A stretch of 64,000 nt of DNA, from NCBI RefSeq assembly GCF_029894425.1, contig NZ_JARXYJ010000001.1, forward strand, positions 8,328,501 through 8,392,500, in the 5' to 3' direction. This document shows, in pieces, positions 8,829 to 27,870 of this stretch (its first letter is position 1; each line of letters begins with the position of its first letter). The notes under the pieces are model-generated. The model ran no database searches, was not told the DNA's origin, and worked only from the letters and a program-made list of their open reading frames with translations. The position numbers and the translations under genes are program-made. Source of the DNA: Streptomyces sp. SAI-127 (GTDB taxonomy: Bacteria; Actinomycetota; Actinomycetes; Streptomycetales; Streptomycetaceae).

Positions 8829-10475
8829 CTACTCGGCGTTCAGATAGGACCGCCAGCCTCCGAATGACGTGATGTCCTCGGCGTCCGTGAGAGCGGACGG
8901 CTCGCAGAGGAAGCCGGGGACATCAGTGCCGTCGGCCAGTCGCACGCTGCCCAGGGCCATGGGGCGGGGGAGTGTGGAGAGGAGTCGGCCGAGGCCCGCC
9001 GCAGGCATCTTCCAGACCTCCGTCTCGATCTCCGCGCCGCCCTCGCCCACGTGGACAAGGCCCGGCTTGGGTGGCGTCGTCCGCAGGGCGTGCAGGCGGT
9101 AGACCGGCGCCGTTGTGGTCGTACGGTCCAGGCGGGCGCCCAGCGCCAGGAGCTGGGGGTTCAGCGGCTGGCCCGTCAGGTGCGCGCCGATCACCGCGAG
9201 CCGGGTCTCCGGCTGGAGCAGGCTCGCGATCCTCGCCAACCGCTCATCGGTGTACGCCGGGCCGATCAGCATCACGCCGAACGGCAGGCCGTTCACCTCG
9301 CCCGCCGGTACGGCGGCCGCGGCCAGGTCGAAGAGGTTCGTGGAGTTGGTGAAGCGGCCCAGGCGGGCGTTGGCACCCAGGGGATCGGCGGCCACCTCGG
9401 CGAGCGTGGGGTGGCCGGGGGTGGTGGGCAGGAGGAGGGCGTCCGCGTCGGCCAGTTCGGCCAGCGCGCGCGTGCGGAGCGCGGCCAGGCGGTCCAAGTC
9501 GGCGTAGAGCCGGTGGGCCGGGAGGTCGCGGGCCCGGGTGATGATGCCGGCGACCGTGGGGTCCAGGGAGTCGTCGTCCGCCTCTATCGCCTTGTCGACA
9601 AAGGCTCCTACCGCTGTGTAGCGCTCGGCCACGAAGGCGCCCTCGTAGAGCATCGCCGCAGCCTCGGTGAAGGGCGACAGATCCAGCTCGCGGAGCGTCG
9701 CGCCCGCCGCCGCGAGCTGCGCCACCGCTGCCTCGTACGCCTGAGCCCAGCCCTCGTCCAGTTCGCCGAGCTGCTCGCGCGCGGGAACAGCGATCCGCCA
9801 CGGGCCGGGGCGGCGCCCGGGGAGGGACGGGACCGTGCCGGTCGCCATGTGGGACAAGGCCTGCTCGGCCTCCCGCAGGGTGCGGGCGAACACCGTCACG
9901 CAGTCGATCGAGGCGCAGGCCGGGACGACTCCGGCCGTGGGGACCAGACCGCGGGTGGGTTTGAGGCCGACGATGCCGTTGAAGGCGGCCGGGACCCGGC
10001 CCGAGCCCGCCGTGTCGGTGCCGAGGGCGAAGTCGACGATGCCCAGGGCCACCGCGACGGCCGAGCCGGAGCTGGAGCCGCCGCTCACCCTGGCGGGGTC
10101 GTACGCGTTGCGGACCGCGCCGTGCGGGGAACGGGTGCCGACCAGGCCCGTCGCGAACTGGTCCAGGTTCGTGGTGCCGAGCACGATCGCGCCCGCCGCG
10201 CGGAGACCGGCGACGACCGGGGCATCGGCCTCCGGACGGTAGGCGTACGACGGACAGCCCGCCGTGGTGGGCAGGCCGGCCACGTCGATGTTGCCCTTGG
10301 CCGCGAACAGGCGTCCCGCGAGGGGGAGTTGCTCACCCTTCGCGAGCCGTTCGTCGATCGTCCGGGCTTCCCGCTTGACCTCCTCCCGCGGGCGCAGGTC
10401 GATCCAGACCTCGGGGCGGTCCACGGCCTCGATGCGGTCGTAGGCGGCACGGACCCGGGTGACGGTGGTGGACAT
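8829..10475 (-). CDS. atzF: Allophanate hydrolase (AtzF type)
   Basis: The 548-residue amidase-signature enzyme hydrolyses allophanate to two ammonia and two CO2, the last step after urea or guanidine carboxylation. The catalytic Lys lies in AKGNIDVAGLPTTAGCPSYA near residue 70, and the Ser-cisSer pair is in the GGSSSGSAVAVALG segment near residue 150. About 100 C-terminal residues (from roughly 430) form the small extra domain typical of AtzF/DUR1. At 548 residues it is slightly short but within the family. It is the last gene of the minus-strand operon, starting 32 bp after the carboxylase stop. That gap holds two copies of a 12-base direct repeat (TTTCACTGTGCG on the plus strand). Confidence 0.93.
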   Translation of the reverse strand: MSTTVTRVRAAYDRIEAVDRPEVWIDLRPREEVKREARTIDERLAKGEQLPLAGRLFAAKGNIDVAGLPTTAGCPSYAYRPEADAPVVAGLRAAGAIVLGTTNLDQFATGLVGTRSPHGAVRNAYDPARVSGGSSSGSAVAVALGIVDFALGTDTAGSGRVPAAFNGIVGLKPTRGLVPTAGVVPACASIDCVTVFARTLREAEQALSHMATGTVPSLPGRRPGPWRIAVPAREQLGELDEGWAQAYEAAVAQLAAAGATLRELDLSPFTEAAAMLYEGAFVAERYTAVGAFVDKAIEADDDSLDPTVAGIITRARDLPAHRLYADLDRLAALRTRALAELADADALLLPTTPGHPTLAEVAADPLGANARLGRFTNSTNLFDLAAAAVPAGEVNGLPFGVMLIGPAYTDERLARIASLLQPETRLAVIGAHLTGQPLNPQLLALGARLDRTTTTAPVYRLHALRTTPPKPGLVHVGEGGAEIETEVWKMPAAGLGRLLSTLPRPMALGSVRLADGTDVPGFLCEPSALTDAEDITSFGGWRSYLNAE

Positions 10476-10507
10476 GGCTCGCTCCTCTTTCACTGTGCGA
10501 CCGCGTT

Positions 10508-13500
10508 TCACTGTGCGGGCGGGGCCAGGACGAGCAGTGCCGTCCCCGCCTCCACCTGGTCGCCCGGCCTGGCCAGGATCTCCGCGACCACGCCATCGGT
10601 CGGCGCGTGCACCCTGGACTCCATCTTCATCGCCTCCAAGGCGAGGAGCGGCTGTCCGGCGGCCACCTGGTCGCCCGGCTGGACGTTCAACTGCCATACG
10701 GAGGCGGCGAATTCGGCCTCGATGAGACGCCCGCCCGGGGGGACCGTCACCGCGGCAGAGGGGGCGGCCGGTGCGGACGTCTCCGCTGCCCGCGCGAACT
10801 CGCCCGCCGCCTCCCACGCGTCCCGCTCCGCGGAGAAGGCCTCCTGCTGATGGGACCTGAACTCCGCTATGGACTCGGCGTGTTCGGCGAGGAAGGACTG
10901 GTACGCGGCGAGCGAGAAGGTGCCCTCCTCGATGCGGGGAACGAAACGTCCGGACGTGATGTCGGCCCGCAGCTCCAGGAGTTCGTCCGCGTCCACCGGA
11001 TACCACCTGATGCGGTCGAAGAAGCGCAGCAGCCAGGGCGAGCCCGGCTCGAACGCGCCGCGCTGCTGCCAGGGCGACCACACCTGGGTCGTACGGCCCA
11101 CGAACTGGTAGCCACCGGGGCCCTCCATGCCGTAGATGCAGAGATACGCTCCGCCGATCCCGACCGAGTTCTCGGCCGTCCAGGTGCGCGCCGGGTTGTA
11201 CTTCGTGGTCACCAGGCGGTGTCGCGGGTCGAGCGGGGTGGCCACCGGGGCGCCCAGGTACACGTCGCCCAGGCCCAGGACCAGGTACTCCGCGTCGAAG
11301 ACGGTGCGGTAGACGTCGTCCACCGACTCCAGGCCGTTGACGCGGCGGATGAACTCGATGTTCCAGGGGCACCAGGGCGCGTCGTCGCGAACGCCGGCCA
11401 TGTAGCGGGCGATCGCCTCGCGGGTGGCGGGGTCGTCCCAGGAGAGGGGGAGGTGGACCGTGCGGGAGCGGACGACCAGTTCGTCGGACGGGGGGAGGGA
11501 CGCGGTGATCTCCCGTACGACGGCGAGGAGTTCGTCCTGGGCGATGCGGCTGGGGTCCGTCTGGATCTGCAGGGAGCGGATGCCGGGGGTGAGGTCGGTG
11601 ATGCCGTCGGGGCCCTGCTCGGCGACCGCGTCCATCAGCGCGTGGACACGCATGCGCAGAGCCAGGTCCAGGTGCATGGGGCCGAATTCGACCAGCAGAT
11701 TGTCGTCGCCGCTGCGACGGTACGTCACATCACCGTCGCGGGCGAGGACACCGCCGTCCACGATCGCCGGGCGGGGCTCGCCCGAGACGTCCACCGGCAT
11801 GAAGCGCACGGTGTCGCCCGGGCGCAGCTGGCCCAGCTTCCAGCGCTCGGTGCTGATGACGGTCGCCGGGCACACGAACCCGCCGAGGGAGGGCCCGTCC
11901 GGGCCCAGCAGCACCGGCATGTCACCCGTGTAGTCGACCGCGCCGACCGAGTAGGGGGTGTCGTGGATGTTGGAGGGGTGCAGGCCGGCCTCGCCGCCGT
12001 CGCTGCGGGCCCAGCGGGGCTTGGGCCCGACCAGGCGGACACCGGTGCGGGCCGAGTTGAAGTGGACCTTCCAGTCGGCGGCGTAGAAGTCGCGGATGTC
12101 GTCCTCGGTGAAGAACTCCGGGGCGGCGTGCGGACCTTCCACGGCGCCGATGTGCCAGGTGGAGGTGTAGGAGGGGCGGTCCTCGACCGGTGTCCCCTCG
12201 GCCTGGGCCTCTGCGAGCAGCGTCCCCTCGGGCGGAGTCTCCGCGCCCGATGTCCCGTGGACGCCGAGAGCGGCCTGTACGTCCTCGGCCTGGCGGCCCG
12301 CGTGCAGGACGTCACCCGTCCGCAGCGCCCGTCCGCCGTGACCGCCGAAGCGACCCAGCGTGAAGGTGCTCGCGCTGCCGAGGAAGGCCGGGACGTCGAG
12401 GCCGCCCGTGAAGAGGACGTACGTCCGCAGACCGTGTTCGGTGGGTGTGCCGACCTCCAGGACACCGCCCGCGGGCACGGTCACCGGCACCCACTGGGCG
12501 ACCGGGGTGCCGTCGACGGCGACCGTGGCCGGAGCGCCCGTCACGCAGACGGTCGTGGCATGGGTGAACCTCAACGACGGGCCCTGCAAGGTGCATTCGA
12601 GGCCGGGGGCACCTTCCGGGTTGCCCAGCGCTGTGTTGCCGAGCCGGAAGGAACGGTCGTCCATCGGGCCGCACGGGGGTACGCCGACCTGCCAGTAGCC
12701 GGTACGGCCCGGCCAGTCCTGCACGGTGGTGAGGGTGCCGGCGGCCATGACCTCGATGCGCGGGGTCGGGTCCTGGACCTGGGACAGGGTCGCCGTCGAG
12801 TGGGTCGCCCTGGCGAGGCTATGGTCCGCGAGCGCGGCCCGGACCAGGCCCAGGTTGGTCTCGATGCCGTCGACGCGGGTGCGTTCCAGGGCTTCGTCCA
12901 GCCGCCGGAGGGCGTGGGCGCGGTCGGGGCCGTACGCGATGATCTTCGCGAGCATCGGGTCGTACGACGTCGTCACCTCGGTGCCGGTCTCCACCCAGCC
13001 GTCGACACGGACCCCGGTGGGGAACTCGACCCGCGTCAACAGCCCCGCGCTGGGCCGGTGTTCACGCGAGGGGTCCTCGGCGTAGATGCGTGCCTCGACG
13101 GCGTGGCCGTGCGGCGGGTCCGGTTCGCGTACGACGTCCCGCTCGCCGCGGGCCAGGCGGAGCATCCAGGCGACCAGGTCGACGCCGTAGATCTCCTCGG
13201 TGACCGGATGCTCCACCTGGAGGCGGGTGTTGACCTCGAGGAAGTAGGCCTCCTCGCGGGCGGCGTCGTAGACGAACTCGACGGTTCCCGCGGAGCGGTA
13301 GCCGACCGCGGCGCACAACTCACGAGCGCTGTCCGCGAGTTGTGCGCGGACGTGCGAGGGGAGACCCGGTGCCGGCGCCTCCTCCAGGACTTTCTGGTTG
13401 CGGCGCTGGAGGGAACAGTCGCGGTCGCCGAAGGTGACGACCCTGCCCTCGCCGTCGCCGAAGACCTGCACCTCGACATGGCGGGCCTGCTCCACGAGCC

Positions 13501-14101
13501 GTTCCAGGAAGACACCGGCGGAGGAGAAGGAGGCGGCGGCGACGCGCTGCACCCGGTCCCAGGCGTCGGTCAGTTCGTCGGCGGAGTGGCAGGCCGACAT
13601 GCCGATGCCGCCGCCACCGCCGGTGGCCTTGAGCATGACGGGATAGCCGATGGCCGCCGCGGATTCGAGGGCCTCCTCGAGCGAGGGCAGCAGCCCCGTG
13701 CCCGGTGCCAGCGGCACCCCGGCCGCCTCCGCCGCCGCCCGTGCCGTGTGCTTCGCGCCGAAGAGCTCCAACTGCTCGGGCGTGGGACCGACGAACACGA
13801 TCCCCGCGTCCGCGCAGCGGCGGGCGAAGGCGGCGTCCTCGGACAGGAAGCCGTAACCGGGATGGATCGCGCCCGCGCCCGAGTCCTTGGCCGCCTTCAG
13901 CACCAGGTCGGTGTCGAGGTACGACTCCTTCGCGGGTGCGGGGCCGAGGCGTACGGCCTGGTCGGCGAGCCGGACGTGAGGTGCGGCGCGGTCGGCGTCG
14001 GAGTACACCGCGACCGTCCGCAGGCCCAGCTCACGGGCCGTGCGGATGATCCGGACGGCTATCTCGCCCCGGTTGGCGACGAGGAGGGTGTCGAAGGTCA
14101 T
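10508..14101 (-). CDS. Urea/guanidine carboxylase, biotin-dependent
   Basis: The 1197-residue multidomain enzyme has a biotin carboxylase at residues 1-450 (LLVANRGEIAVRIIRTA, KATGGGGGIGM ATP-grasp loop, EVNTRLQVEHPVTE). It continues with a KipA-like half at about 460-770, a KipI-like half at about 790-1010, and a C-terminal biotinyl domain with ALEAMKMES near 1150. It makes allophanate from urea or carboxyguanidine from guanidine. Enzymes encoded beside UAAP1/UAAP2 genes, as here, have been reported to prefer guanidine; the sequence alone does not settle the substrate. The start overlaps the upstream gene by 4 bp, and allophanate hydrolase follows. Confidence 0.93.
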   Translation of the reverse strand: MTFDTLLVANRGEIAVRIIRTARELGLRTVAVYSDADRAAPHVRLADQAVRLGPAPAKESYLDTDLVLKAAKDSGAGAIHPGYGFLSEDAAFARRCADAGIVFVGPTPEQLELFGAKHTARAAAEAAGVPLAPGTGLLPSLEEALESAAAIGYPVMLKATGGGGGIGMSACHSADELTDAWDRVQRVAAASFSSAGVFLERLVEQARHVEVQVFGDGEGRVVTFGDRDCSLQRRNQKVLEEAPAPGLPSHVRAQLADSARELCAAVGYRSAGTVEFVYDAAREEAYFLEVNTRLQVEHPVTEEIYGVDLVAWMLRLARGERDVVREPDPPHGHAVEARIYAEDPSREHRPSAGLLTRVEFPTGVRVDGWVETGTEVTTSYDPMLAKIIAYGPDRAHALRRLDEALERTRVDGIETNLGLVRAALADHSLARATHSTATLSQVQDPTPRIEVMAAGTLTTVQDWPGRTGYWQVGVPPCGPMDDRSFRLGNTALGNPEGAPGLECTLQGPSLRFTHATTVCVTGAPATVAVDGTPVAQWVPVTVPAGGVLEVGTPTEHGLRTYVLFTGGLDVPAFLGSASTFTLGRFGGHGGRALRTGDVLHAGRQAEDVQAALGVHGTSGAETPPEGTLLAEAQAEGTPVEDRPSYTSTWHIGAVEGPHAAPEFFTEDDIRDFYAADWKVHFNSARTGVRLVGPKPRWARSDGGEAGLHPSNIHDTPYSVGAVDYTGDMPVLLGPDGPSLGGFVCPATVISTERWKLGQLRPGDTVRFMPVDVSGEPRPAIVDGGVLARDGDVTYRRSGDDNLLVEFGPMHLDLALRMRVHALMDAVAEQGPDGITDLTPGIRSLQIQTDPSRIAQDELLAVVREITASLPPSDELVVRSRTVHLPLSWDDPATREAIARYMAGVRDDAPWCPWNIEFIRRVNGLESVDDVYRTVFDAEYLVLGLGDVYLGAPVATPLDPRHRLVTTKYNPARTWTAENSVGIGGAYLCIYGMEGPGGYQFVGRTTQVWSPWQQRGAFEPGSPWLLRFFDRIRWYPVDADELLELRADITSGRFVPRIEEGTFSLAAYQSFLAEHAESIAEFRSHQQEAFSAERDAWEAAGEFARAAETSAPAAPSAAVTVPPGGRLIEAEFAASVWQLNVQPGDQVAAGQPLLALEAMKMESRVHAPTDGVVAEILARPGDQVEAGTALLVLAPPAQ

Positions 14102-14736
14102 CGTGCGGCCCCGATCGTCTTCTCAGCGGCCCCGATCGTCGTCTCCGCGGCCTCGATCGTCATCTCCACGGGTGTCGGGTCGAAGCCGTTGCAAGGGTTG
14201 TTGATCTGGGGGCAGTTGGAGACCAGGACGAGGACGTCGCGCTCGGCGCGCAGCGTGAGCGAGAGGCCCGGCGCGGAGATGCCGTCGACGATGCCGAGAG
14301 TGCCGTCCTTCTCGACCGGCACGTTCATGTACCAGTTGATGTTGGAGACGAGGTCGCGCTTGCCGAGACCGTGCTTCGCGCCCTCGGCGAGGAAGTTGTC
14401 CACGCAGGCGTGCTGCGACCAGGTGTGATGGCCGTAGCGCAGGGTGTTCGACTCCTTGGAGCAGGCGCCGCCGACGGTGTCGTGGCGGCCCACGTCGTCT
14501 GCGGTGACCGTCATCAGCGGGGTGTGCTCTCCGGACATCAGCACGCTGCCCGTGGTGAGGAAGATGCCGCCCTGCGCCTGGATGGTGTCGGGGGCGCTGT
14601 AGCGGACCGACGTGTCGTGGGCGTCGTAGACGAGGAAGTCGACGGCCTGGTTGCCGTGCAGGTCGGTGATGGTGAGCGTCTCGCCCTCGCGGATGACGCG
14701 GGACCAGGCGGCGCGGGCCGGAACCACGGTCTTCAT
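14098..14736 (-). CDS. cgdA: UAAP1 / carboxyguanidine deiminase subunit A (DUF1989)
   Basis: The 212-residue DUF1989 protein was long labelled urea carboxylase-associated protein 1. Work on guanidine metabolism assigned the UAAP1/UAAP2 pair as a carboxyguanidine deiminase that converts carboxyguanidine to allophanate and ammonia. Conserved blocks include LTITDLHGNQAVDFLVYDA, HDTVGGACSKESN (putative metal-binding His and Cys), and NINWYMNVPVEKDG. The C-terminal about 15 residues are a low-complexity TIEAAETTIGAAEKTIGAA repeat, unusual for the family and possibly a local duplication. It overlaps both neighbours by 4 bp, so it is translationally coupled. Confidence 0.88.
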   Translation of the reverse strand: MKTVVPARAAWSRVIREGETLTITDLHGNQAVDFLVYDAHDTSVRYSAPDTIQAQGGIFLTTGSVLMSGEHTPLMTVTADDVGRHDTVGGACSKESNTLRYGHHTWSQHACVDNFLAEGAKHGLGKRDLVSNINWYMNVPVEKDGTLGIVDGISAPGLSLTLRAERDVLVLVSNCPQINNPCNGFDPTPVEMTIEAAETTIGAAEKTIGAAR

Positions 14737-15557
14737 GCGTGTCCCTTCGAGGCGAGGAATTCGGCGGTGTTGAGGAAGGCGCGGCGGCCTTCGGGAGTGG
14801 CGTCCCAGAGGGCGTGGCCGGCACGGGTGGGTTCGGCGCGCCAGGCGAGGACTTCCAGGGGGGTGCATGTGTAGTCGGGCCGTGGGTCGGCGGGGTGCGG
14901 GACGTTCGCGATCAGCACCGTCAGGTCCTGTTCGGCGCGAAGGGTGACGCTGCCGCCGGGACCCACTGAGCCGGTGAAGTCGAGGGTGCCGTCCTCGCGG
15001 ATCCGGACGCCCTGGAAGAAGGAGAGGGACGGGGGCAGATCGCGGGGTTCGAGGCCGTTCTTCGCGGCTGCCAGCTTGAAGAGCTCACGGCCGGCGGGGG
15101 AGGGACTCTGGGGGGTGCCGTCGCCGTAGCGCCCGGTGTTGCGGACCAGGGTGGAGGTGCCGCAGAGGGCGTCGTGGCGGCCGGAGGTGTCGGAGACGAC
15201 GCTCGCGAGGACGCGGCCCTGGTCGGACAGGAGCAGTTGGCCCTCGCCGAGGTAGGCGTTCCACTGGACCTTGACCGTGTCGGCGACGTTCAGACGCTCC
15301 CAGGGGCGGCCCTCCGCGTACAGGAGGAGGTGGGCGCAGGCGTCTCCGTGCGGGTCGGTGAGGCGCAGTTCGGTGCCGCGGCCGAGGACGCGGTGGGTGT
15401 AGTTGCCGCCCGCGACGGTCTCCGCCCACACCAGGTGGCCCGCCTCGCAGGGTGGGTCCGGCCAGTCGCCGGCCGGGACGACGGGCATGGCCTCGGCGCG
15501 GGTGCCCTCCTGGGCGCGGGCGTGGTCTCGGGCTCCGTACGTGGTCTGCGTGGCCAT
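14733..15557 (-). CDS. cgdB: UAAP2 / carboxyguanidine deiminase subunit B (DUF1989)
   Basis: The 274-residue protein is the first gene of the operon and a paralogue of the downstream UAAP1 protein. It shares the DUF1989 blocks: LRLTDPHGDACAHLLLY, SGRHDALCGTSTLVRNTGRYG and LPPSLSFFQGVRIREDGTLD. With CgdA it should form the deiminase acting on carboxyguanidine. The ATG at 15557 follows a GGAGG site on the minus strand. A 22-bp palindrome at 15583-15604 lies 26-47 bp upstream of the start, where it would cover the promoter or early transcribed region. No ykkC/guanidine-I aptamer fits into this short leader. Confidence 0.88.
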   Translation of the reverse strand: MATQTTYGARDHARAQEGTRAEAMPVVPAGDWPDPPCEAGHLVWAETVAGGNYTHRVLGRGTELRLTDPHGDACAHLLLYAEGRPWERLNVADTVKVQWNAYLGEGQLLLSDQGRVLASVVSDTSGRHDALCGTSTLVRNTGRYGDGTPQSPSPAGRELFKLAAAKNGLEPRDLPPSLSFFQGVRIREDGTLDFTGSVGPGGSVTLRAEQDLTVLIANVPHPADPRPDYTCTPLEVLAWRAEPTRAGHALWDATPEGRRAFLNTAEFLASKGHA

Positions 15558-15582
15558 GGCGGGACCTCCGGCTGCGGGGGTT

Positions 15583-15604
15583 ATTTCTGTCGTTCGACAG
15601 AAAT
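15583..15604. promoter_or_regulatory. Palindromic operator of the carboxylase operon
   Basis: Perfect arms ATTTCTGTCG and CGACAGAAAT are separated by two bases. The same motif with two mismatches occurs at 27849-27870 before the APC permease gene, in the same orientation relative to its gene and with the same flanking TAATTT on the sense strand. AT-rich outer bases in such GC-rich DNA support a real site. The TetR protein encoded at 16611-17252 is the nearest candidate to bind it. Confidence 0.78.
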
Positions 15605-15782
15605 TAGGGGCGGAGCGGGTCGGAGGGGTTGCTCGGGCGTTGCCAGCGGGTTACCGGGGGCTCACAGGGGCGTCGTGGGGGGGCGGGGCGGTGGGGCGGT
15701 GGGGCGGGGTGCGGCCGCACGGCGGAGCGGGAAGTCGATACGGCCTCGCGGCCCTGGAGGGGGGTGGGGCGTGACGGGGCGT

Positions 15783-16600
15783 TGGTGGCCGGTCGGCGCG
15801 TGTGGGTCACGCGGAGATCCCTGGGCCCCTGGGGGATGGGGTGTGCCGGGGTGTTGGTGGCTGGACTGCGCCGGTGGGTTACGCGGAGATCCCCGGGCCC
15901 TGGGGCGTGCCGGTGAAGCGGCGGCCAGTCGGCGTCCGTGGTTACGCGGAGGTCCTCGCGCCCCTGGGGTGGAGCGTGCCGGTGGGCCGGCGGCCAGTCG
16001 GCGTCCGTCGTTATGCGGAGGTCCTCGCGCCCCTGGGGTGGAGCGTGCCGGTGGGCCGGCGGCCAGTCGGCGTCCGTCGTTACGCGGAGGTCCTCGCGCC
16101 CCTGGGGTGGAGCGTGCTGGGGTGCCGACCGCCGGTCAGCGCCCGTTGGAGCACGCGGCGATCCCCGGGACCATGAGGGCTGGGGTGTGGGCGGCCGGAG
16201 GGTGCCTGTGGGGTCCCGCGGCGATCCCCGGGATCATGGGGGCTGGGGTGTGCCGGGGTGTTGGTGGCCGGCTCGACGCTCGTAGATCACGCGGCGATCC
16301 TCGCGGCCCAGGGGGAGCGTGCCGGGGTGTGGGCGGCCGGAGGGTGCCTGTGGGGTCCCGCGGCGATCCCCGGGATCATGGGGGCTGGGGTGTGCCGGGG
16401 TGTTGGTGGCCGGCTCGATGCTCGTAGATCTCGCGGCGATCCTCGCGGCCCAGGGGGAGCGTGCCGGGGTTTGGGTGGCCGGGCCGGCTTCTGTGGGTCA
16501 CGCGGAGAGCCTCGCGCCCTGGGGGCTGGAGCGTGCCGGGATGCCGGCGGCCGGCCGGCGCCTGTGGATCACCTGCGGATCCCCGCGCCCCGTGTGCGAG
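15783..16600. repeat. Tandem minisatellite, about 11-12 units of 64-72 bp
   Basis: Degenerate GC-rich units run head to tail. Each contains a variant of ACGCGGAGATCC, then a G-rich CCCTGGGG stretch, GTGCCGGGGTG and GTGGCCGG. Three units are almost identical with a 69-bp period (GCGGCCAGTC at 15921, 15990 and 16059). A 142-bp double unit is duplicated nearly exactly (GCGGCCGGAG at 16191 and 16333). The array fills most of the 1.05 kb between the carboxylase operon and the TetR gene. Open frames across it follow from the period and show no family features. Confidence 0.88.
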
Positions 16601-16610
16601 GATCGAACGC

Positions 16611-17252
16611 ATGGGTACGACAAGCGGTGCGGCGGAGTCCGGGCGACGGGTCGGCAGGCCGCGGGCCGCTCGGCGGCCGGACAGCGGGCTGGCGCCGCGT
16701 GACGAACTCCTCGTCGCCGCAGCCGAGTTGTTCACCTCCCTGGGCTACGCCGCCACCAGCACCCGGGCGGTCGCCGAGCGCGCGGGCATGCGGCAGGCGT
16801 CCATGTACCACTACGTCTCCGGCAAGGAGGAGCTCCTCGCCGAGCTCCTGGAGTCCACCGTCACGCCCTCGTTGGCGTACGCCCGCGAGCTGCTCGCCGA
16901 CGACACGGTCCCGGCAGAGAACCGGCTGTGGGAGCTGTGCCGCGCGGACACCGAGGTGCTGTGCGGCGGGCCGCACAATCTCGGCGGGCTCTATCTGCTG
17001 CCCGAGGTGCGTGCCGAGCGGTTCGCCGGTTTCCATGCCGTGCGCGCCGAACTCAAGGACGCCTACCGGCAGTTGCTCGCCGCCACGCCGACGGGCGGCG
17101 CCCTCGCCAAGAACGAGCTCGACCTGCGCACGGACCTGTTGTTCGGCCTGATCGAGAGCGTGATCCTCATCCACCGCTCCGACCCCGAGCGCCCTGTCTC
17201 GGTCTTCGCGGAGGCCACCGCGGACGCGGCCCTGCGCATCGCCGGAATCTGA
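16611..17252 (+). CDS. TetR-family transcriptional regulator
   Basis: The 213-residue protein has an N-terminal TetR helix-turn-helix at about residues 30-75 (RDELLVAAAELFTSLGYAAT, STRAVAERAGMRQASMYHYV) and a helical ligand-binding C-terminus. The first 25 residues are a basic, disordered extension. It is divergent from the guanidine/urea carboxylase operon, so a role in sensing guanidine, urea or a pathway intermediate is plausible, with the palindromes at 15583 and 27849 as targets. The long minisatellite between them makes this link inferential. ATG at 16611 has only a weak ribosome site (GAGGATCGAACGC). Confidence 0.88.
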   Translation: MGTTSGAAESGRRVGRPRAARRPDSGLAPRDELLVAAAELFTSLGYAATSTRAVAERAGMRQASMYHYVSGKEELLAELLESTVTPSLAYARELLADDTVPAENRLWELCRADTEVLCGGPHNLGGLYLLPEVRAERFAGFHAVRAELKDAYRQLLAATPTGGALAKNELDLRTDLLFGLIESVILIHRSDPERPVSVFAEATADAALRIAGI

Positions 17253-20537: not shown

Positions 20538-20666
20538 CGGGTGGCCCGGCAGTGTCGTACCGCCGGCCGCCCTCTGCCACGCTCCCGGCTTCACTCGAAC
20601 CACTCGGACCGGGGCAGCCCATCACTTCCTGTACACCAGATCGATCTCAGCTTCGGAGCGACCATC

Positions 20667-22150
20667 GTGACGCCTGAATCCCTTTCCCCGACCGGTACGG
20701 ACGACCCCATGGCCGCCCCTCCCCCCGGCTGCCCCGCACACGGCATCGGCATCGGCGGACTGCGTCGGCTGTACGGCCCTGGGGCGGAGGACCTGGAGTC
20801 CGTGTACGAGGAGCTCCGCGCGGAGCACGGACCTGTGGCTCCTGCGCTGCTTCACGCTGATGTGCCGATCTGGATGGTGCTCGGTCACTCCGAGAACCTG
20901 CACATGGTGCGCAACCCCTCTCAGTTCTGCCGAAACACCCGATTGTGGTCAGCCCTGCAGGACGGCACGGTCAAGCCCGACCATCCGCTCATGCCGCACT
21001 TCGCCTGGCAACCCATCTGCAGTCACGCCGAGGGCGACGAGCACCTGCGGTTGCGCGGTGCGGTCACCGGTGCCATGTCGACCATCGATCACCGAGGCAT
21101 CCGCCGTTACATCAACCGAGCGACCCAGCAACTCGTCAACAAGTTCTGCCGGGAGGGTAGGGCCGACCTGGTCGGCCAGTTCGCCGAGCACCTGCCGATG
21201 GTGGTGATGTGCGAGATCCTCGGTATGCCCGAGGAGTACAACGATCAGATCGTGCAGGCCGCTCGTGACATGCCCAAGGGCAGCGAGACCGCGATCGCCA
21301 GCAACGCATACCTCATGGACGTCCTGATGCGGCTCACCGCCCGCCGCCGGGCCGAACCGAGGGACGACTTCACCAGCCACCTGATCAACCACCCGGCGAA
21401 TCTCACCGACGACGAGGTCGGCCAGCACCTGCGCATCATCCTGGTGGCAGCCTACGAAGCCACCGCCAACCTGATCGCCAACGTGATGCGTGTGTGGTGC
21501 TGACCGACCCGCGGTTCCGCGCCCAACTCAACGGCGGCCAGATGACGGTGCCCCAAGCCGTCGAGCAGTCCCTTTGGGACGAGCCGCCGTTCAGCACCGT
21601 CCTTCCCTACGTCGCCAAGCAGGACACTGAGCTGGGCGGCCAGCGCATTCGTAAGGGTGACGCCCTCATCCTCGGCATCGCGCCGGGCAATGTAGACCCA
21701 CGAGTCCGGCCCGACCCCAAGGCCCACATGCAGGGCAACCGCTCCCACCTGGCCTTCGGTGGCGGCCCTCATGAGTGCCCGGGTCAGGACATCGGCCGTG
21801 TCATCGCCGAGGTCGGCGTCGACGCACTGCTGACCCGCCTGCCTGACGTTCAACTCGCCTGCGACGAGGACGAGCTGGGCTGGTGGGCATCCATCTCGAA
21901 CCGGCACTTGGTGGAACTGCCGGTGAAGTTCGAGGCCAAGCCCCAGCAGGACGTCATGGCGCGGCCCGCGCACCCGTTGGCGTTGCAGCGTTCCAGCGAC
22001 TGGCTGGTCAGCACGCCCCAGCCGAAGACGGCGCCTTTGGAGGCTACCTCTCCCACCACCGCCCCGAAGCCGACGCCGATGCCGACGCCCGAACCGGCTG
22101 GTCGGCCTGGTGTGTTCCGGCGCTTCCTGCGCTGGTGGCGCGGCGAGTGA
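20667..22150 (+). pseudogene. rarE: Conservon cytochrome P450 (RarE, CYP157-like), frameshifted
   Basis: Two adjacent frames together make one P450. The first runs from GTG 20667 (GGAG upstream) through the I-helix region LVAAYEATANLI to a TGA at 21501-21503. The second resumes at LTDPRFRAQLNGG and continues through EQSLW, the heme loop FGGGPHECPG (Cys codon 21776-21778) and a Pro-rich tail to 22150. The junction near 21486-21494 reads CGTGTGTGG where CGTGTGG would keep the frame, so a GT duplication (2 bp) breaks the gene. The K-helix ExxR is replaced by EQSLW, the variant known for CYP157 enzymes of Streptomyces conservons. Either a genuine inactivation or an assembly error is possible. Confidence 0.88.
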
Positions 22151-22166
22151 GCCGACCGGCCTGAGG

Positions 22167-23111
22167 CTATCCGGCAGCCCATTCGTCGTACGACGACCAC
22201 GCCCGCAGCACGCGAGGGCTGACGAACCGGTGCTCGCGTCCCGTGATCGGATCGGTGAACTCCAGCACCCGTGCCAGCAGTTGGAGCGGACGCCGGAAGT
22301 CGCCGGACGCAATGGGGTCGGTGACCACTGGATAGAGGGGGTCGCCGAGGATCGGCACGCCCAGAGCGCTCATGTGCACCCGCAACTGATGCGTCTGCCC
22401 GGTACTCGGCGTCAGCCGGTACCGGGCGCGCTCGCCCCGGTGCTCCAGCAACTCGATCCGGCTGACGGCGTTGGGCTCGCCCTCGATCTCCCGGGCCGCC
22501 AGGACTCCGCGTTCCTTGACGATCCGGCTGCGCACGGTGCGCGGCAGGGGCAGCGCCGGGTCGTACGGGGCCACGGCTTCGTACTCCTTCGCCACCCGTC
22601 TGTCCCGGAACAGCGACTGATAGGCGCCGCGCTCCTCGGGCCGCACGGTGAACATCACCAGGCCGGCTGTCAGTCGGTCCAGCCGGTGCGCGGCGCCCAA
22701 TGTGGGGATGCCCAGCTGCCGGCGCAGCCGCGCCAGGGCCGTCTCGGCGACATGGCTGCCGCGCGGGGTGGTGGCCAGGAAGTGCGGCTTGTCGGCCACG
22801 ACTACGTGTTCGTCCCGGTAGATGACGTCGATCGGGTAGGGGACCCGCTCCTCGTCGGGCAGCTCCCGGTGGAACCACACGAACATCCCCGGCACGTACG
22901 CCATGTCGCGCGTCACCGGATGCCCGGCGGCATCCACGACCCGCCCCGCCTCCAGCAGTCCGTCGATCACCTCGGCCCCTGCCGCGAGCCGCGCCACGAG
23001 ATGATCCCGCACGGTCGCCCAACCCTCACCGATCGGCAACCGCACCCGCACCGGATCGACCCCGTCGCGCTGCGGCAGGGGAGAGGGCGGGGGCGGAGTA
23101 CGGCGTCTCAT
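22167..23111 (-). CDS. RluA-family RNA pseudouridine synthase
   Basis: The 314-residue protein has the RluA catalytic signature AAHRLDRLTAGLVMFTV, in which the Asp of HRLDR is the nucleophile, then RVAKEYEAV and the C-terminal GQTHQLRVHMSALGVPILGDPLY motif. It should isomerise uridine in rRNA or tRNA; the target cannot be named. An N-terminal S4-like segment (residues 20-85) precedes the catalytic domain. ATG 23111 begins MRRRTPPPP; the frame is open further upstream but without family features. It converges on the P450 gene with 16 bp between stops. Confidence 0.9.
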   Translation of the reverse strand: MRRRTPPPPSPLPQRDGVDPVRVRLPIGEGWATVRDHLVARLAAGAEVIDGLLEAGRVVDAAGHPVTRDMAYVPGMFVWFHRELPDEERVPYPIDVIYRDEHVVVADKPHFLATTPRGSHVAETALARLRRQLGIPTLGAAHRLDRLTAGLVMFTVRPEERGAYQSLFRDRRVAKEYEAVAPYDPALPLPRTVRSRIVKERGVLAAREIEGEPNAVSRIELLEHRGERARYRLTPSTGQTHQLRVHMSALGVPILGDPLYPVVTDPIASGDFRRPLQLLARVLEFTDPITGREHRFVSPRVLRAWSSYDEWAAG

Positions 23112-23275
23112 CAGGACCAAGCCTACGAGGGGCCTCTGACAGTGAGGTCGAGGTGGGGCTCCCAGCAGAAGGTTGCGCCTTCCCTGCGTCCCTTGGCTGG
23201 TGCCGAGCGTGGCACGCGTCTGATGGGTGCTGTTTCGAAGATCGCCTGTGAACCCCGATCGCCGGTAATGGGAAG

Positions 23276-24301
23276 TTATCGAGACACCGTTGTGAGGTTT
23301 GCGGGGTGAAGCTGGCCGGTCATGTTCGGGCTCAGCGCGCCGGCCGTGCGTGGGGAATAACGACCATTGCTGCGACTCCAGTCGTAGCTGCCGCGTATCC
23401 ATGTGAACAGCGCGGTCGCATAACGTTGGACCTTCTCTGACTCCGTGCTCGTGAGGCCGAGCCGGGCGCAGAACAGGGGGACCAGCTTCATCTGCTCAAA
23501 GAGCTGACTGACTGTTGTCTGAACGAGGGTGATGGCCAGCCTGATGGCTTCCGCCCGGGAACAATTGCGTTGCCGCATGAGGCAGTGCACCAGGTTGGGA
23601 TCGCCTCGTGCGTCGTCGTTCTCGAGGGACATCACCTCGTTGATGAGTTTGACGGCATCGACAGCTGCTCGTCGCATCGACTCCAAATGACTGCTATGCC
23701 AAATGATCTGTGGGATCTCGAAGTGTCCCACCCTTTCGGCCATGTCGAGCGAGGGAATGAGCCCCAGTGTGCGGTGCCCGACCCTCATCCGGGTGGCGAA
23801 GTCCTCGGGGATCCATGTGCGGCGATCGACTTCCTCAGTGAGGTTTCCTGTCAGGTAATCCATCCAATTGTGAGCGGCCCGCTGCTGCCATTCCTCGGAC
23901 ATCCCCATCTTGGCTCGACGCCAGATGTCCGCGAAGGCGCTCACGAGAGGCGCATCGTGGTTGGTTTCCCGCTGCGAGGGACGGGTGATGAGCGTGATGA
24001 GTTGCTGGCACACGTCGACGGCCGCATCGGCTTTGCATCCCTCGGGCACATCAAACAGATCATCGAAAAGGAAGAACCAGCCCATGGTGTCAAAGGCCAG
24101 GTCGAGGTCATCACCTTCGGCGTCCGGGTAGCTGTAGGCGGCCAAGTCCGCTACTGCTGAGAATATGTAGCGCTGAGTGGCCCTATGTCCCAGCACTAGT
24201 TTCTGGTGACGCATCCATTCCAGATTGCGGTCCCTGGCGGCTACCAAACCGGTGTTCAGTCGGGGAGGAATGGGCAAGTTGATGGTTACGTTCTGGGGCA
24301 T
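23276..24301 (-). CDS. Class I terpene synthase (sesquiterpene-cyclase-like)
   Basis: The 341-residue all-helical synthase should ionise a prenyl diphosphate, probably farnesyl diphosphate, and cyclise it. The aspartate-rich motif is D80-D81-L-F-D84 within FFLFDDLFD. The second metal motif is NEVMSLEND (N221, S225, D229), where the usual third ligand Glu is Asp and the usual ND is NE. The diphosphate-sensing Arg lies near residue 173 and the C-terminal RY pair is present (SNGRYS). ATG 24301 has GGGAGAG six bases upstream. No prenyltransferase or tailoring gene adjoins it except the conservon P450. The product cannot be predicted from sequence. Confidence 0.9.
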   Translation of the reverse strand: MPQNVTINLPIPPRLNTGLVAARDRNLEWMRHQKLVLGHRATQRYIFSAVADLAAYSYPDAEGDDLDLAFDTMGWFFLFDDLFDVPEGCKADAAVDVCQQLITLITRPSQRETNHDAPLVSAFADIWRRAKMGMSEEWQQRAAHNWMDYLTGNLTEEVDRRTWIPEDFATRMRVGHRTLGLIPSLDMAERVGHFEIPQIIWHSSHLESMRRAAVDAVKLINEVMSLENDDARGDPNLVHCLMRQRNCSRAEAIRLAITLVQTTVSQLFEQMKLVPLFCARLGLTSTESEKVQRYATALFTWIRGSYDWSRSNGRYSPRTAGALSPNMTGQLHPANLTTVSR

Positions 24302-24453
24302 TATTCTCTCCCAGTTCTGCCTCGGCATGCTTATCGGCCCAGACGGGCGAGTGGTCGTCGATGCCTGGTGCCCGCGGGTGTCGCTGCCTCAGGATTCTTG
24401 TCCGGAGACCAACCGAATTGATGTATACGGCGAGCCGGACGAGATGAAGCGCC

Positions 24454-24732
24454 TCAGGCGAGTCCAGTGGGGGCCCCGCGACCTTCGGCGCCGTCAGGGG
24501 GGCTGCCACGGTCCTGAGGGCCCCTCCTCCCGGTCAATCTCGCTGCAGGATTGATGCGGGTCGGCGGGTGGCGCCTCTGCTCGGGCGGACCCGGTGGCTG
24601 CCAGCCGACCATGGTCCCGGTCGGGCTGGGCCAGCGGACCGACGTGCTGGCCAGAGGCGCGAGCACCACCTGCGGCGTCTGCTCGGTCAAGGGAGCGGAC
24701 CGAGGCAACTGGGCACGAGCAGAGTCTTTCAT
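24454..24732 (-). CDS. Possible small protein, 92 residues, unknown
   Basis: ATG 24732 has a GGAGGG six bases upstream. The product starts MKDSARAQLPRSAPLTEQ and is Pro- and Arg-rich, with no domain, membrane segment or cysteine pattern. The good ribosome site is the only support; the composition of the second half looks like non-coding GC-rich sequence. Confidence 0.25.
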   Translation of the reverse strand: MKDSARAQLPRSAPLTEQTPQVVLAPLASTSVRWPSPTGTMVGWQPPGPPEQRRHPPTRINPAARLTGRRGPQDRGSPPDGAEGRGAPTGLA

Positions 24733-24855
24733 GATGCCCTCCGGGTGGCGGAGTCGACCAAGTTCATGAACTGTGCGTTGTGCTCCACACGCTGCGACTG
24801 CGGCGTTGCTGACTCGTGCACGTCCTGGGCCGGCCATCGGTCGAGCGGAGCCTCG

Positions 24856-24972
24856 TCAACGGCATGCCGGGCAGTTCGCTGGCGTGACCTTCGAGGAGAC
24901 CGCGCGACGGCGCAGACAATCCGTGGCCACCACCGCCACGACAGCGTTGTCGCAGGCGAGGTCGTGGATCAT
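24856..24972 (-). CDS. Possible 38-residue Cys-containing small protein
   Basis: ATG 24972 follows a GGAAGG site on the minus strand. The peptide begins MIHDLACDNAVVAVVATDCL and ends NCPACR, giving four cysteines including a terminal CPAC pair, a pattern compatible with a small zinc-binding protein. It is too short to judge further. Confidence 0.35.
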   Translation of the reverse strand: MIHDLACDNAVVAVVATDCLRRRAVSSKVTPANCPACR

Positions 24973-25608
24973 CCCTACCTTCCAGTGCCGCCCTGGGTTT
25001 CGTCAACTGTGCGGGGCGAGTTGGCGCTGGTGTGAGGTGCCGTGGCGGGCCGCCGCGCGGGGCATGTCGGGTGGGAGCCGGTTCACGGTTCTCGGTGACA
25101 TTCCGGACAGCCGGGTCGGCAGGAGGTGGGCCGTCGCCCCGAGTTGATTCGCACTAGCGTACGACCGCGTCCATCGCGCCGACCACATCGGTGCGTTGCG
25201 CGGAGCACGCACCCGAGCCGCACCGCCGACCCTCGCAGGCATCCGGCCACCATCCTCACGGGCCCGGGGTGCGACGCCGCTCTTGCCGGCGATTCACCTG
25301 ACAGCCCACCACTTCGCACCATGCGACGATTTCCGGCCGTGGGAAAGGGGGCGCAGCCCCGGCGCACGGAGCGGATCCCCTGGCCGCCGGATGCACGGCC
25401 GCGCATTCCAGCCTGTCGGTGCGCCGCGGGTACCACCCTCGTTTGCGGCTGTTGGGGAGCAAGTTCGTCCGGGGGCGGGCTGTCCGGCTCGAGCGCCCAG
25501 GACGTGACAGGGGTTCGGCGCGAGGGTGGGCGCCGGGCCCGTGTCTGATCGGCGTCGAGGGTAAAAACTCGTTGGGACGGACTCCGTGCGGTTGGCAGGA
25601 TGCGGCTC

Positions 25609-26190
25609 ATGCCGTTCCTCACCGGCCCGGTCCTCGCACCAGGCATCCTCTCCAGCACCGCCCAGCCCACCCTCTCCACCGGCGACGGCCTGCTCCTGCG
25701 TCCCTGGCGGGCCGAGGACGCGCCCGCGGTCCACGCCGCGTTCCAGGACCCGGTGATGCAACAGTGGCACGCCCGTGCCGCCGACTCCGTGGACGAGGTC
25801 GGCGGCTGGATCGAGGAGTGGCGGGAGGCCTGGGCCCAGGAGAGGACCGCTCAGTGGGCCGTGGTGGAGGCGGACACCGAGCTGCTGCTCGGCCGGGTGG
25901 CGCTGCGCGAGATCAATCTCGTCGACGGGCAGGCCGAGATGGCGTACTGGACGACCGTGGTGGCGCGTGGGCGGGGTGTAGCGGCGCGTGCCACGGTCGT
26001 CCTGTCGCGCTGGGCCCTCGACGACATCGGGTTCCACCGTCTCGAGCTCCTGCACGCCGTCCGTAATGAGGCCTCGTGTCGTGTCGCGACCAAGACGGGC
26101 TTCGTTCTGGAAGGGACCAAGCGAAGTGCCGTTCTGCATCCGGACGGTTGGCACGACATGCATCTGCATGCGCGTGTCCGGGGCGACTGA
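25609..26190 (+). CDS. GNAT-family N-acetyltransferase
   Basis: The 193-residue protein has the RimJ/RimL-type GNAT fold: LLLRPWRAEDAPAVHAAFQD, the acetyl-CoA loop region VARGRGVAARATVVLSRWA, and NEASCRVATKTGFVLEGTKR. It transfers acetyl from acetyl-CoA to an amine, either a protein N-terminus or a small molecule; the substrate is not evident. I prefer ATG 25609 (AGGA eight bases upstream) over ATG 25600. It converges on the permease gene, with short direct repeats in between. Confidence 0.9.
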   Translation: MPFLTGPVLAPGILSSTAQPTLSTGDGLLLRPWRAEDAPAVHAAFQDPVMQQWHARAADSVDEVGGWIEEWREAWAQERTAQWAVVEADTELLLGRVALREINLVDGQAEMAYWTTVVARGRGVAARATVVLSRWALDDIGFHRLELLHAVRNEASCRVATKTGFVLEGTKRSAVLHPDGWHDMHLHARVRGD

Positions 26191-26232
26191 GGGGCTTCCA
26201 AGAGGGGCTTCCAAGAGGGGCTGCCAAGTGGG
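26189..26232. repeat. Short tandem repeat after the acetyltransferase gene
   Basis: Three head-to-tail copies of a 15-base unit (GAGGGGCTTCCAA, third copy GAGGGGCTGCCAA) lie in the 72-bp gap between the convergent acetyltransferase and permease genes. The unit forms no obvious hairpin. Confidence 0.7.
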
Positions 26233-26262
26233 ACCGATGGGGGTCCGCCAAGGGGCCGCCCC

Positions 26263-27789
26263 CTACCCCGTCGGCGTACGCCCGCGAACCGCCCGCCACG
26301 CCACGCCCACTGCCAGCGTCGCGGCCAGGAACAGCACCGTGAACCACTGGAAGTACCAGTGCCCGCCCGCCGGGTCGTACACCTCTGCCCGGGGCCAGGC
26401 CAGGTTGACGGTCATCAGGAGGCCGTAGAGGAGGGCCAGGGCGTTGACCGGGACGCCCCAGCGGCCCAGGGAGAACAGGCGGGCGCCCGTCTCGTCCGTG
26501 CCCTCCGACGTGAACTCCCCTCGCACGCGCCGGATCAGCAGCGGGCCCGTGACCATCGCGTACGCCAGGTAGAGCATCACGATGCAGGTCGTGCCGATCG
26601 CCAGGAACGCCTCCGGGGAAGCGAAGTTGAGGAGCAGCAGTGCGGCGGCCAGGATGCCGACGACCAGAGCGGGGGCGGTGGGCATGCCCGTGCGGGGGTT
26701 CACCCGCGCGAGGCGGCCCGCGAAGGGCAGTTGGCCGTCGCGGGCCATGGAGAAGAGCATGCGGCAGGCCGCTGTCTGGATGGCGAGGGTGGCCACCGCG
26801 ATCGCGACCACCACGTCGGCCAGCAGGGCCTTGCCGACACCGTCGCCCAGGCTGCTGGTGAGGACGTAGCTGAGGCCGTCGACCGACAGGTGCCCGTCGG
26901 TGAGGCTGGGGGCGGCTAGCAGGCCGCCCAGGACGAGCAGGCCGCCGAGCACGCCGGCCGCGCCGAGGGCCGTGAGGATCGTGCGGGGCGCGGTGCGGCG
27001 CGGGGCGTGTGTCTCCTCGCTCATCTCGCCCGCGCTGTCGAAGCCGATCATCACGTACGCCGCCGCGAACGAGCCCACCAGCAGGGCCCCGAGCAGGCCG
27101 CTCTGCGCGGCGCCCGTGGTGTGGAAGGTGATGCTCGGCGTGCGCTCGGAGTGGGTCAGCAGGAGCACGATGATCAGGACCGCGCCGATGATCTCGGCGG
27201 TGACGCCGACCCGGTTGACCAGGGACAGCACGCGGTTGTCGAGGATGTTCACGACGGTCGTCAGGACCAGCAGGATCACGCCGAGGAGTGCCGCGTTGGC
27301 CGCCCCGTCCGCCGAGGTCGGCGCCGGGTCGGTGCCGACCAGCTGGAAGCCGGACCAGATCGCCGGGAGCACCATCTGCAGGGCGAGTGCCGCCGCCGCG
27401 ACCACGACGATCTGCCCGATCACCATGATCCAGCCGGCGAACCAGCCGAAGGCCGGGGTGGCGAGGCGGGACGACCACTGGTAGATCGCGCCGGACAGCG
27501 GGTAGCGCGCCGCCAGTTCCGCGAAGCAGGCCGCCACCAGGAACTGCCCGACCAGTACCACCGGCCAGGCCCAGAAGAAGACGGGGCCGCCGAACGCGTA
27601 CCCGAAGGCGAAGAACTGGAAGACGGTCGTCAGGACCGAGATGAAGGAGAACCCCGCCGCGAAGGACGCGTACCGGCCCAGGCTCCGGTGCAGTTCCTGG
27701 TGGTAGCCGAACTCGGTGAGGGAGCGGTCGTCGGGGGAGGAGGAGTGCGGGGGATCGGGACGGACGTCGGAGGGGCTGGCTGTCGTCAC
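26263..27789 (-). CDS. APC-superfamily permease, probably of the urea/guanidine carboxylase system
   Basis: The 508-residue transporter has about 12 membrane helices and the APC consensus elements (YPLSGAIYQWSSRLATPAFGWFAGW, GFDSAGEMSEETHAPRR). The start DRSLTEFGYHQELHRSLGRY is typical of the APC group often encoded with urea carboxylase genes. Its upstream region carries a near-copy (27849-27870) of the palindrome in front of the carboxylase operon, supporting a joint role in importing the substrate, probably guanidine, urea or a related amine. GTG 27789 has an AAGGCAGG upstream; ATG 27813 is the alternative. It is divergent from the PadR gene. Confidence 0.87.
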   Translation of the reverse strand: MTTASPSDVRPDPPHSSSPDDRSLTEFGYHQELHRSLGRYASFAAGFSFISVLTTVFQFFAFGYAFGGPVFFWAWPVVLVGQFLVAACFAELAARYPLSGAIYQWSSRLATPAFGWFAGWIMVIGQIVVVAAAALALQMVLPAIWSGFQLVGTDPAPTSADGAANAALLGVILLVLTTVVNILDNRVLSLVNRVGVTAEIIGAVLIIVLLLTHSERTPSITFHTTGAAQSGLLGALLVGSFAAAYVMIGFDSAGEMSEETHAPRRTAPRTILTALGAAGVLGGLLVLGGLLAAPSLTDGHLSVDGLSYVLTSSLGDGVGKALLADVVVAIAVATLAIQTAACRMLFSMARDGQLPFAGRLARVNPRTGMPTAPALVVGILAAALLLLNFASPEAFLAIGTTCIVMLYLAYAMVTGPLLIRRVRGEFTSEGTDETGARLFSLGRWGVPVNALALLYGLLMTVNLAWPRAEVYDPAGGHWYFQWFTVLFLAATLAVGVAWRAVRGRTPTG

Positions 27790-27848
27790 GGCGGCACCTG
27801 CCTTCGGCGGCATGAGGGCGGAGAGCGGAACAGCGGTGCGGGAGCTGA

Positions 27849-27870
27849 ATTCCTGTCGGGTGACAGAAAT
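27849..27870. promoter_or_regulatory. Palindromic operator of the APC permease gene
   Basis: Arms ATTCCTGTCG and TGACAGAAAT flank a GG. They differ from the carboxylase-operon palindrome (15583-15604) at two of 20 arm positions. On the sense strand of each gene the sites share TAATTTCTGTC followed by CGACAG. The site lies about 60 bp before the permease start. Confidence 0.75.

What the first reader, a model, noticed from the sequence alone, without database searches (positions are those of the whole stretch)
8829..27870. Guanidine/urea carboxylase operon and a distant APC permease share one palindromic operator
The palindrome before the CgdB-CgdA-carboxylase-AtzF operon (15583-15604) recurs with two mismatches before the permease gene (27849-27870), in the same sense orientation and at a similar distance from the start. 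This unites four catabolic genes and a transporter, 12 kb apart, into one regulon. The conservon, P450 and terpene synthase lie between the two loci, so the system may once have been contiguous. It appears to be controlled by a protein repressor or activator rather than the guanidine-I riboswitch found upstream of many such operons.
Basis: partly seen in the sequence, partly recalled or inferred. Interest (0 to 1): 0.72.

Follow-up and report, generated by a model that had tools for sequence, protein, structure and literature searches.

The report
Shared AmtR operator, guanidine operon and permease
A Streptomyces guanidine-breakdown operon and the gene of its likely importer, 12 kb apart, carry the same DNA switch for the repressor AmtR; the switch is already described in a sister species, but the enzyme signature points to guanidine rather than urea as the food it controls.

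Summary
In detail: the two palindromes are the only such sites in the 10.7 Mb genome, and the pair recurs before orthologous operons and permeases. The TetR protein at 16611-17252 is AmtR by sequence. The site matches the published AmtR consensus (PMC8864220 passage), and PMC4222082 lists this gene set, permease included, as the predicted AmtR regulon, so the shared operator is not new. What no searched paper links to AmtR is guanidine. The carboxylase has both guanidine signature residues. AmtR accompanies 45 of 45 Asp-type loci (43 in the stretch, 2 elsewhere in the genome) and is absent from 8 of 8 Asn (urea-type) loci; two further loci with a guanidine-I riboswitch lack AmtR. AmtR is described as a urea regulator whose inducer was not found among urea and amino acids; guanidine is an untested candidate.

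The parts
8829..10478 (-). atzF-type allophanate hydrolase, last gene of the operon
   Evidence: TIGR02713/NF006043 over cut-off
10508..14101 (-). biotin-dependent carboxylase annotated urea carboxylase; carries guanidine carboxylase signature (D723 = K. lactis 1330, D946 = K. lactis 1584)
   Evidence: TIGR02712 1845.5 bits; alignment to 5i8i/3va7; signature definition in PMC11410670; table
14098..14736 (-). UAAP2, one subunit of the carboxyguanidine deiminase pair
   Evidence: TIGR03424 over cut-off
14733..15557 (-). UAAP1, the other subunit, first gene of the operon
   Evidence: TIGR03425 over cut-off
15583..15604 (.). AmtR operator 1, perfect arms ATTTCTGTC-n4-GACAGAAAT, about 26 nt before UAAP1
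   Evidence: found before UAAP1 in 28 aligned promoters
15639..15654 (-). GlnR-type box GTAAC-n6-GCAAC, starting 51 nt before the operator 20-mer in gene sense
   Evidence: same offset in 28 of 28 promoters; plain shuffles give a box anywhere in a mean of 0.94
16611..17252 (+). amtR, TetR-family repressor, divergent from the operon
   Evidence: PF00440; best solved relative is AmtR 5e57, E 3.2e-35
26263..27789 (-). APC permease of the urea/guanidine carboxylase system
   Evidence: TIGR03428 'permease, urea carboxylase system' 657.9 bits, E 9.4e-198, below its cut-off of 740.45
27849..27870 (.). AmtR operator 2, one arm change (ATTCCTGTC on the + strand), about 60 nt before the permease
   Evidence: the arm change recurs at 22 of 24 orthologous sites
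27883..27898 (-). GlnR-type box GTCAC-n6-GAAAC, starting 29 nt before the operator 20-mer in gene sense
   Evidence: box at 23 of 24 permease sites, at this offset in 21; plain shuffles give a mean of 1.28

Best explanation
The two palindromes are operators of the TetR-family repressor AmtR, encoded at 16611-17252. AmtR holds down the UAAP1-UAAP2-carboxylase-AtzF operon and the distant APC permease together. A GlnR-type activator box lies at a fixed spacing upstream of each operator, so the likely logic is activation by GlnR when nitrogen is short and blocking of the same promoters by AmtR until it is released. Shown here: the sites, their uniqueness and conservation, the sequence identity of the regulator, the boxes, and the signature of the enzyme. 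Inferred: binding, direction of control, and that the pathway feeds on guanidine (guanidine imported by the permease, carboxylated, deiminated to allophanate, then hydrolysed to ammonia and CO2). What releases AmtR is unknown.
For: Only two sites in the genome. Site pairs recur in the genus and in two genomes of another family (G218, G269). AmtR identity: 5e57 at E 3.2e-35. The core CTGTC-n4-GACAG lies before target genes or amtR in 95 of 105 distinct AmtR-plus-carboxylase loci at up to 1 mismatch (81 exact), against 2 of 105 with spacer n6 and 7 of 105 with spacer n3. PMC4222082, section 10: the same genes are the predicted AmtR regulon, and M. smegmatis AmtR shifts the permease promoter. PMC8864220, passage: AmtR consensus TAtCTGTCa-n2-cGACAGATAT, citing Chen 2013. 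G310, whose amtR lies about 1.15 Mb away, keeps both sites. Boxes at fixed offsets; random 160-nt stretches hold such a box in 232 of 6000 draws.
Against: No binding or expression data for this organism. Ten of 105 AmtR-plus-carboxylase loci show no core site within 400 nt of the three genes: five Amycolatopsis, Kibdelosporangium, Actinocrispum, two mycobacterial loci and G409. The reversed-order control core reaches 21 of 105 at 1 mismatch (8 exact), so the one-mismatch count has background. Two of 25 carboxylase-negative Streptomyces keep an AmtR relative with no site near it. In M. smegmatis nitrogen control stayed intact in the amtR mutant (PMC4222082), so AmtR may be only a damper under GlnR.
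Confidence: 0.88

Rival explanations
1. The palindromes are bound by another protein, for instance the PadR regulator divergent from the permease (28046-28636) or an unlinked TetR protein.
For: A PadR gene lies next to site 2. AmtR binding of this very DNA was not measured.
Against: AmtR and the operator travel together. The site matches the published AmtR consensus. A PadR gene next to site 2 does not explain site 1. I did not test whether the PadR gene is conserved.
Confidence: 0.05
2. The system serves urea, as the annotation and the AmtR papers say.
For: Family names say urea carboxylase; the open papers on AmtR speak of urea metabolism (passages).
Against: Asp at both guanidine carboxylase signature positions and a UAAP1/UAAP2 pair in the operon; the 8 loci with Asn at the first position show no UAAP genes and no AmtR in the stretch.
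Confidence: 0.07
3. The shared palindrome is an RNA element or terminator rather than a protein operator.
For: It is an inverted repeat a short way upstream of both start codons.
Against: No Rfam match in 8000-29000 at E up to 1. Arms and n4 spacer are conserved before two unrelated leaders and match a known operator.
Confidence: 0.02

Closest known systems
AmtRsav regulon of Streptomyces avermitilis (Chen et al. 2013, Microbiology 159:2571; reference and consensus seen only through PMC8864220; the paper itself is not held)
   Same: Same regulator type and same gene set with a separate permease (sav6709 listed with sav6698, sav6697 and amtR sav6701 in PMC4222082), same operator core. As recalled from the abstract, direct binding at both promoters was shown there.
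   Different: Another species; here a repeat array of about 0.7 kb lies between operator 1 and amtR, and guanidine rather than urea is argued as substrate.
AmtR of Mycobacterium smegmatis (Jessberger 2013, PMC4222082, section 10 read; Petridis 2016 recalled, not held)
   Same: AmtR lowers transcripts of permease, carboxylase and hydrolase genes within the GlnR modulon; it binds the permease promoter; urea and amino acids had no effect on binding.
   Different: amtR is not co-localized with its targets there.
Guanidine-I riboswitch-controlled guanidine carboxylase operons (PMC12186494 and PMC11410670, passages)
   Same: Same pathway enzymes and, in nitrifiers, an APC permease.
   Different: Sensor is RNA; no RF00442 match was found in this genome.
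AmtR of Corynebacterium glutamicum
   Same: TetR-family nitrogen repressor; that several of the structures hit come from this species is recalled.
   Different: Binding motif CTAT-N6-ATAG and release by PII protein GlnK (PMC8864220 passage); it is the central nitrogen regulator there.

Membership tests
AmtR regulators | TetR-type HTH and closest sequence relatives are AmtR proteins | tested here: met
   PF00440; of the six best solved relatives (E 3.2e-35 to 3.7e-28) three are labelled AmtR (5e57, 5mqq, 6gy3) and three only 'TetR family transcriptional regulator' (5dxz, 5dy1, 5dy0; recalled to be AmtR); the next chain is at 6.6e-10
AmtR regulators | Operator CTGTC-n4-GACAG before the carboxylase operon and permease | tested here: met
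   consensus
AmtR regulators | Protein binds the operator and represses | not testable with these tools
   needs gel shift and transcript data
Guanidine carboxylase (GC) | Asp at K. lactis position 1584 and Asp (not Asn) at 1330 | tested here: met
   D723 aligns with 5i8i N1330; D946 aligns with 3va7 D991, which is 1584 by the offset of 593 between 3va7 and 5i8i; definition from PMC11410670
Guanidine carboxylase (GC) | Carboxyguanidine deiminase pair in the operon | tested here: met
   UAAP1 and UAAP2 over cut-off
Guanidine carboxylase (GC) | Activity on guanidine | not testable with these tools
   enzyme assay needed
Guanidine riboswitch operons | Guanidine riboswitch upstream | tested here: not met
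   no Rfam match at E up to 1 in 8000-29000; no RF00442 in the genome, with stricter filters that lose weak matches
GlnR modulon | GlnR box gTnAc-n6-GaAAc in the promoter | tested here: met
   consensus from PMC10704036 passage; the full consensus has four half-sites, of which I scored one a-b pair
GlnR modulon | GlnR binds and activates | not testable with these tools
   needs gel shift and a glnR mutant

The most novel reading that the evidence does not exclude
Outside Corynebacterium, AmtR is the protein counterpart of the guanidine riboswitch: a repressor dedicated to guanidine assimilation that is released by guanidine or by a pathway intermediate (carboxyguanidine, allophanate). Its unknown inducer, which was not found among urea and amino acids, would then be guanidine-derived, and the AmtR 'urea regulon' of actinomycetes would be a guanidine regulon.
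Probability: 0.35. Interest if true: 0.62.

Novelty: new member of a known kind. Interest (0 to 1): 0.33.

Why it matters
The shared operator itself is established biology in a new species. The useful addition is the link from AmtR to guanidine-type carboxylases and not to urea-type ones, with contrasts inside four families. It makes the open question of what AmtR senses directly testable, and it would add a protein-based guanidine switch to the four known RNA classes.

Tried and rejected
(1) A 'recognition code' between AmtR residue 67 and the base next to the CTGTC core looked good in the first set (His with TCTGTC, Tyr with CCTGTC). It was refuted by Glycomyces (L133), Amycolatopsis (L137) and Actinoplanes (L143), which have Tyr67 with TTTCTGTC. 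Rejected. (2) I first took four Streptomyces with a diverged AmtR (G003, G007, G020, G063) as lacking the operator; the site is there with other flanks, TACCTGTC-n4-GACAGGTA, before a permease-first operon, also in G230, G260 and G423. (3) Riboswitch control of this operon: rejected. (4) A paper search for AmtR plus CTGTC gave mostly unrelated text matches but led to PMC8864220. (5) Structure prediction and fold search were not used, because solved relatives exist and the tools return no coordinates in which a ligand pocket could be inspected.

Not done: of 120 handles first listed for the carboxylase search, 80 were sent again and 40 were not. Of 18 loci meant for the Rfam scan, 15 were scanned (L035, L039 and L087 left out). 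The box shuffles keep base composition only, not dinucleotides. Chen 2013 and Petridis 2016 could not be read.
Full report
CHECK OF THE OBSERVATION. With up to three mismatches to ATTTCTGTC-n4-GACAGAAAT they are the only two matches in the 64 kb window, with none expected, and the only two in the genome of 10.7 Mb. The bare core CTGTC-n4-GACAG is exact at 8 places in the genome, no more than its backwards control (9), so the arms beyond the core are what makes the two sites special. The two copies differ at four positions, not two: three in the spacer and one in an arm.

CONSERVATION. In 199 relatives (window genome included) the pattern at up to 2 mismatches occurs in 64 genomes. In the genus it comes repeatedly as a pair about 2.4-12 kb apart on the same contig; in most listed pairs one member is exact and the other has the arm change of site 2, with exceptions such as G014 and G097 (the match list is cut). 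I fetched the surroundings of the carboxylase from 55 carboxylase-positive genomes, 56 loci with the window (G165 has two), plus some further AmtR loci. The site lies just before UAAP1 in 28 loci (26 of the 31 in the genus, and G218 and G269 of another family) and before the permease at 24 sites in 23 loci. In G033 and G269 a permease site is present but fell outside my start-distance rule. In G310 amtR lies about 1.15 Mb away but both sites are kept. The other five genus members with a carboxylase are G003, G007, G020 and G063, with a diverged AmtR of about 40% identity and the site TACCTGTC-n4-GACAGGTA before a permease-first operon, and G069, where no AmtR was found at E up to 1e-20.

THE REGULATOR. 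The six best solved relatives of the TetR protein 16611-17252 run from 5e57 (AmtR, E 3.2e-35) to 6gy3 (AmtR, 3.7e-28); three of the six bear the name AmtR and three only 'TetR family transcriptional regulator'; the next chain is at 6.6e-10. AmtR (E up to 1e-20) is in 46 of 55 carboxylase-positive genomes and in 2 of 25 carboxylase-negative Streptomyces. Together there are 129 AmtR loci with 122 distinct proteins (7 duplicates dropped). Of the 105 that also hold the carboxylase and UAAP1, 81 have an exact core and 95 a core with up to one mismatch within 400 nt of UAAP1, permease or amtR. Controls in the same stretches, exact and at one mismatch: spacer n6, 0 and 2; spacer n3, 1 and 7; order reversed, 8 and 21. 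The ten without a site are five Amycolatopsis, Kibdelosporangium, Actinocrispum, Mycolicibacterium elephantis, Mycolicibacter senuensis and G409; they are unexplained. Of the 17 AmtR proteins without carboxylase and UAAP1 in the stretch, 8 have a core site.

PRIOR KNOWLEDGE. PMC4222082 (section 10 read) derived this gene set by co-occurrence as the AmtR regulon in ten actinobacteria. For S. avermitilis it lists sav6709 (permease), sav6698, sav6697 and sav6701 (amtR), with the permease located elsewhere and amtR transcribed in the opposite direction. It showed binding of M. smegmatis AmtR to the permease promoter, raised transcripts in the mutant, and no effect of urea or amino acids on binding. 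PMC8864220 (passages) gives the 22-bp consensus TAtCTGTCa-n2-cGACAGATAT and cites Chen et al. 2013 on AmtRsav. That paper is not in the library; I recall from its abstract that sites before sav_6700 and sav_6709 were mapped by mutagenesis and gel shift. I also recall, with no call behind it, that Petridis et al. 2016 (not held) gives CTGTC-N4-GACAG for M. smegmatis. The shared operator is therefore known biology.

GLNR BOXES. Upstream of operator 1 lies GTAAC-n6-GCAAC (15639-15654) and upstream of operator 2 GTCAC-n6-GAAAC (27883-27898), both in gene sense. The GlnR consensus is gTnAc-n6-GaAAc-n6-GtnAC-n6-GAAAc (PMC10704036 passage); I scored one a-b pair. At up to one mismatch a box starts exactly 51 nt before the operator in 28 of 28 UAAP1 promoters (plain shuffles: mean 0.94 with a box anywhere). 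A box is present at 23 of 24 permease sites (shuffles 1.28): 29 nt before the operator in 21, at 30 in G218, and at 49 for the second of two overlapping sites of G014; G310 has none. Random 160-nt stretches of the same loci hold such a box in 232 of 6000 draws. The two offsets differ by 22 bp, two helical turns. The fit to the published picture, GlnR activating and AmtR a secondary repressor, is good; binding is not shown.

GUANIDINE, NOT UREA. PMC11410670 (section 12 passage) requires Asp at K. lactis positions 1584 and 1330 for guanidine carboxylase, and PMC12186494 (passage) gives Asp for guanidine and Asn for urea carboxylases. The window protein has Asp at both. Across 56 carboxylase loci, 45 have Asp at the 1330 position, 8 Asn, 2 Met, and one (G001) is cut off there. 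All 45 Asp loci have UAAP1 and UAAP2 hits; AmtR is in the same fetched stretch in 43 and elsewhere in the genome in 2 (G310, G277). None of the 8 Asn loci shows UAAP genes or AmtR in the stretch (that of G171 is only 4 kb), and AmtR is absent from the whole genome in the 7 that have no Asp locus. The contrast holds inside four families: f1 (G069 against the rest), f6 (G165 carries both types, at separate loci, and only the Asp type is beside amtR), f19 (genus g21 against g38) and f21 (G328 against G337). These rows are related by descent, so the counts are not independent.

RIBOSWITCH. The guanidine-I riboswitch (RF00442) is over its cut-off in 2 of 80 genomes (55 with and 25 without a carboxylase): G150 and G216, both without AmtR and both with a match at the carboxylase locus. 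A third, weak match (34.4 bits against a cut-off of 63) is in G328, which has AmtR, on another contig. G150 and G216 have two UAAP genes each but Met at the signature position, so they are a third subtype, G150 is only 78% complete, and the exchange of riboswitch for AmtR rests on two cases. Over gathering scores no riboswitch was found at the 7 full-size Asn loci or at the 6 AmtR loci scanned alongside G150 and G216.

HISTORY OF THE GAP. Of 105 loci, 26 have the permease directly before UAAP1 on the same strand, 11 under 1 kb from amtR, 3 at 1-5 kb and 41 at 5-12 kb; 24 stretches hold no permease. The block between them (histidine kinase and GTPase of a conservon, pseudouridine synthase) is found in 39 of 40 far loci (window not counted) and 0 of 14 near ones; the terpene synthase in only 1 of 40. 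An inserted block that split a compact arrangement is the simplest reading.

VERDICT. The part worth following is the guanidine link: no paper in the searched open library holds AmtR together with guanidine (subscription papers are mostly not held), and the inducer of this AmtR type is open.

Noticed in passing
window 15901-16591: GC-rich tandem repeats (period about 69, also 142) fill much of the gap between operator 1 and amtR; here operator 1 is about 1 kb from amtR, and about 0.8 kb in the close relative G336, against 83-400 nt in the genus members printed (distances over 450 nt were not printed). This may uncouple amtR from autoregulation in this lineage.
   Followed up: partly
L066, L067, L073, L075, L077, L078, L083, L084 (family f6): The carboxylase of these loci (AmtR in the same stretch except L077) matches only about residues 445-1120 of the family model, about 660 aa, so the biotin carboxylase and biotin carrier parts were not found in that gene.
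   Followed up: no
L090 and L091 (G138, G287), also L156, L166, L167, L170: AmtR relatives with no carboxylase in the fetched stretch (in G138 and G287 a second copy) have two core-type sites before themselves, suggesting autoregulation.
   Followed up: no
L088 and L089 (G150, G216): Guanidine-I riboswitch loci whose carboxylase has Met where guanidine enzymes have Asp and urea enzymes Asn: possible third substrate class.
   Followed up: no
G016, G033 and G102; variants in G003, G007, G020 and G319: A recurring, different palindrome GTTCTGTCATGGGACAGCAA appears in several Streptomyces, not paired with the AmtR sites.
   Followed up: no
   Followed up: partly
window 28046-28636: PadR-family regulator divergent from the permease; its target is unknown.
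   Followed up: no
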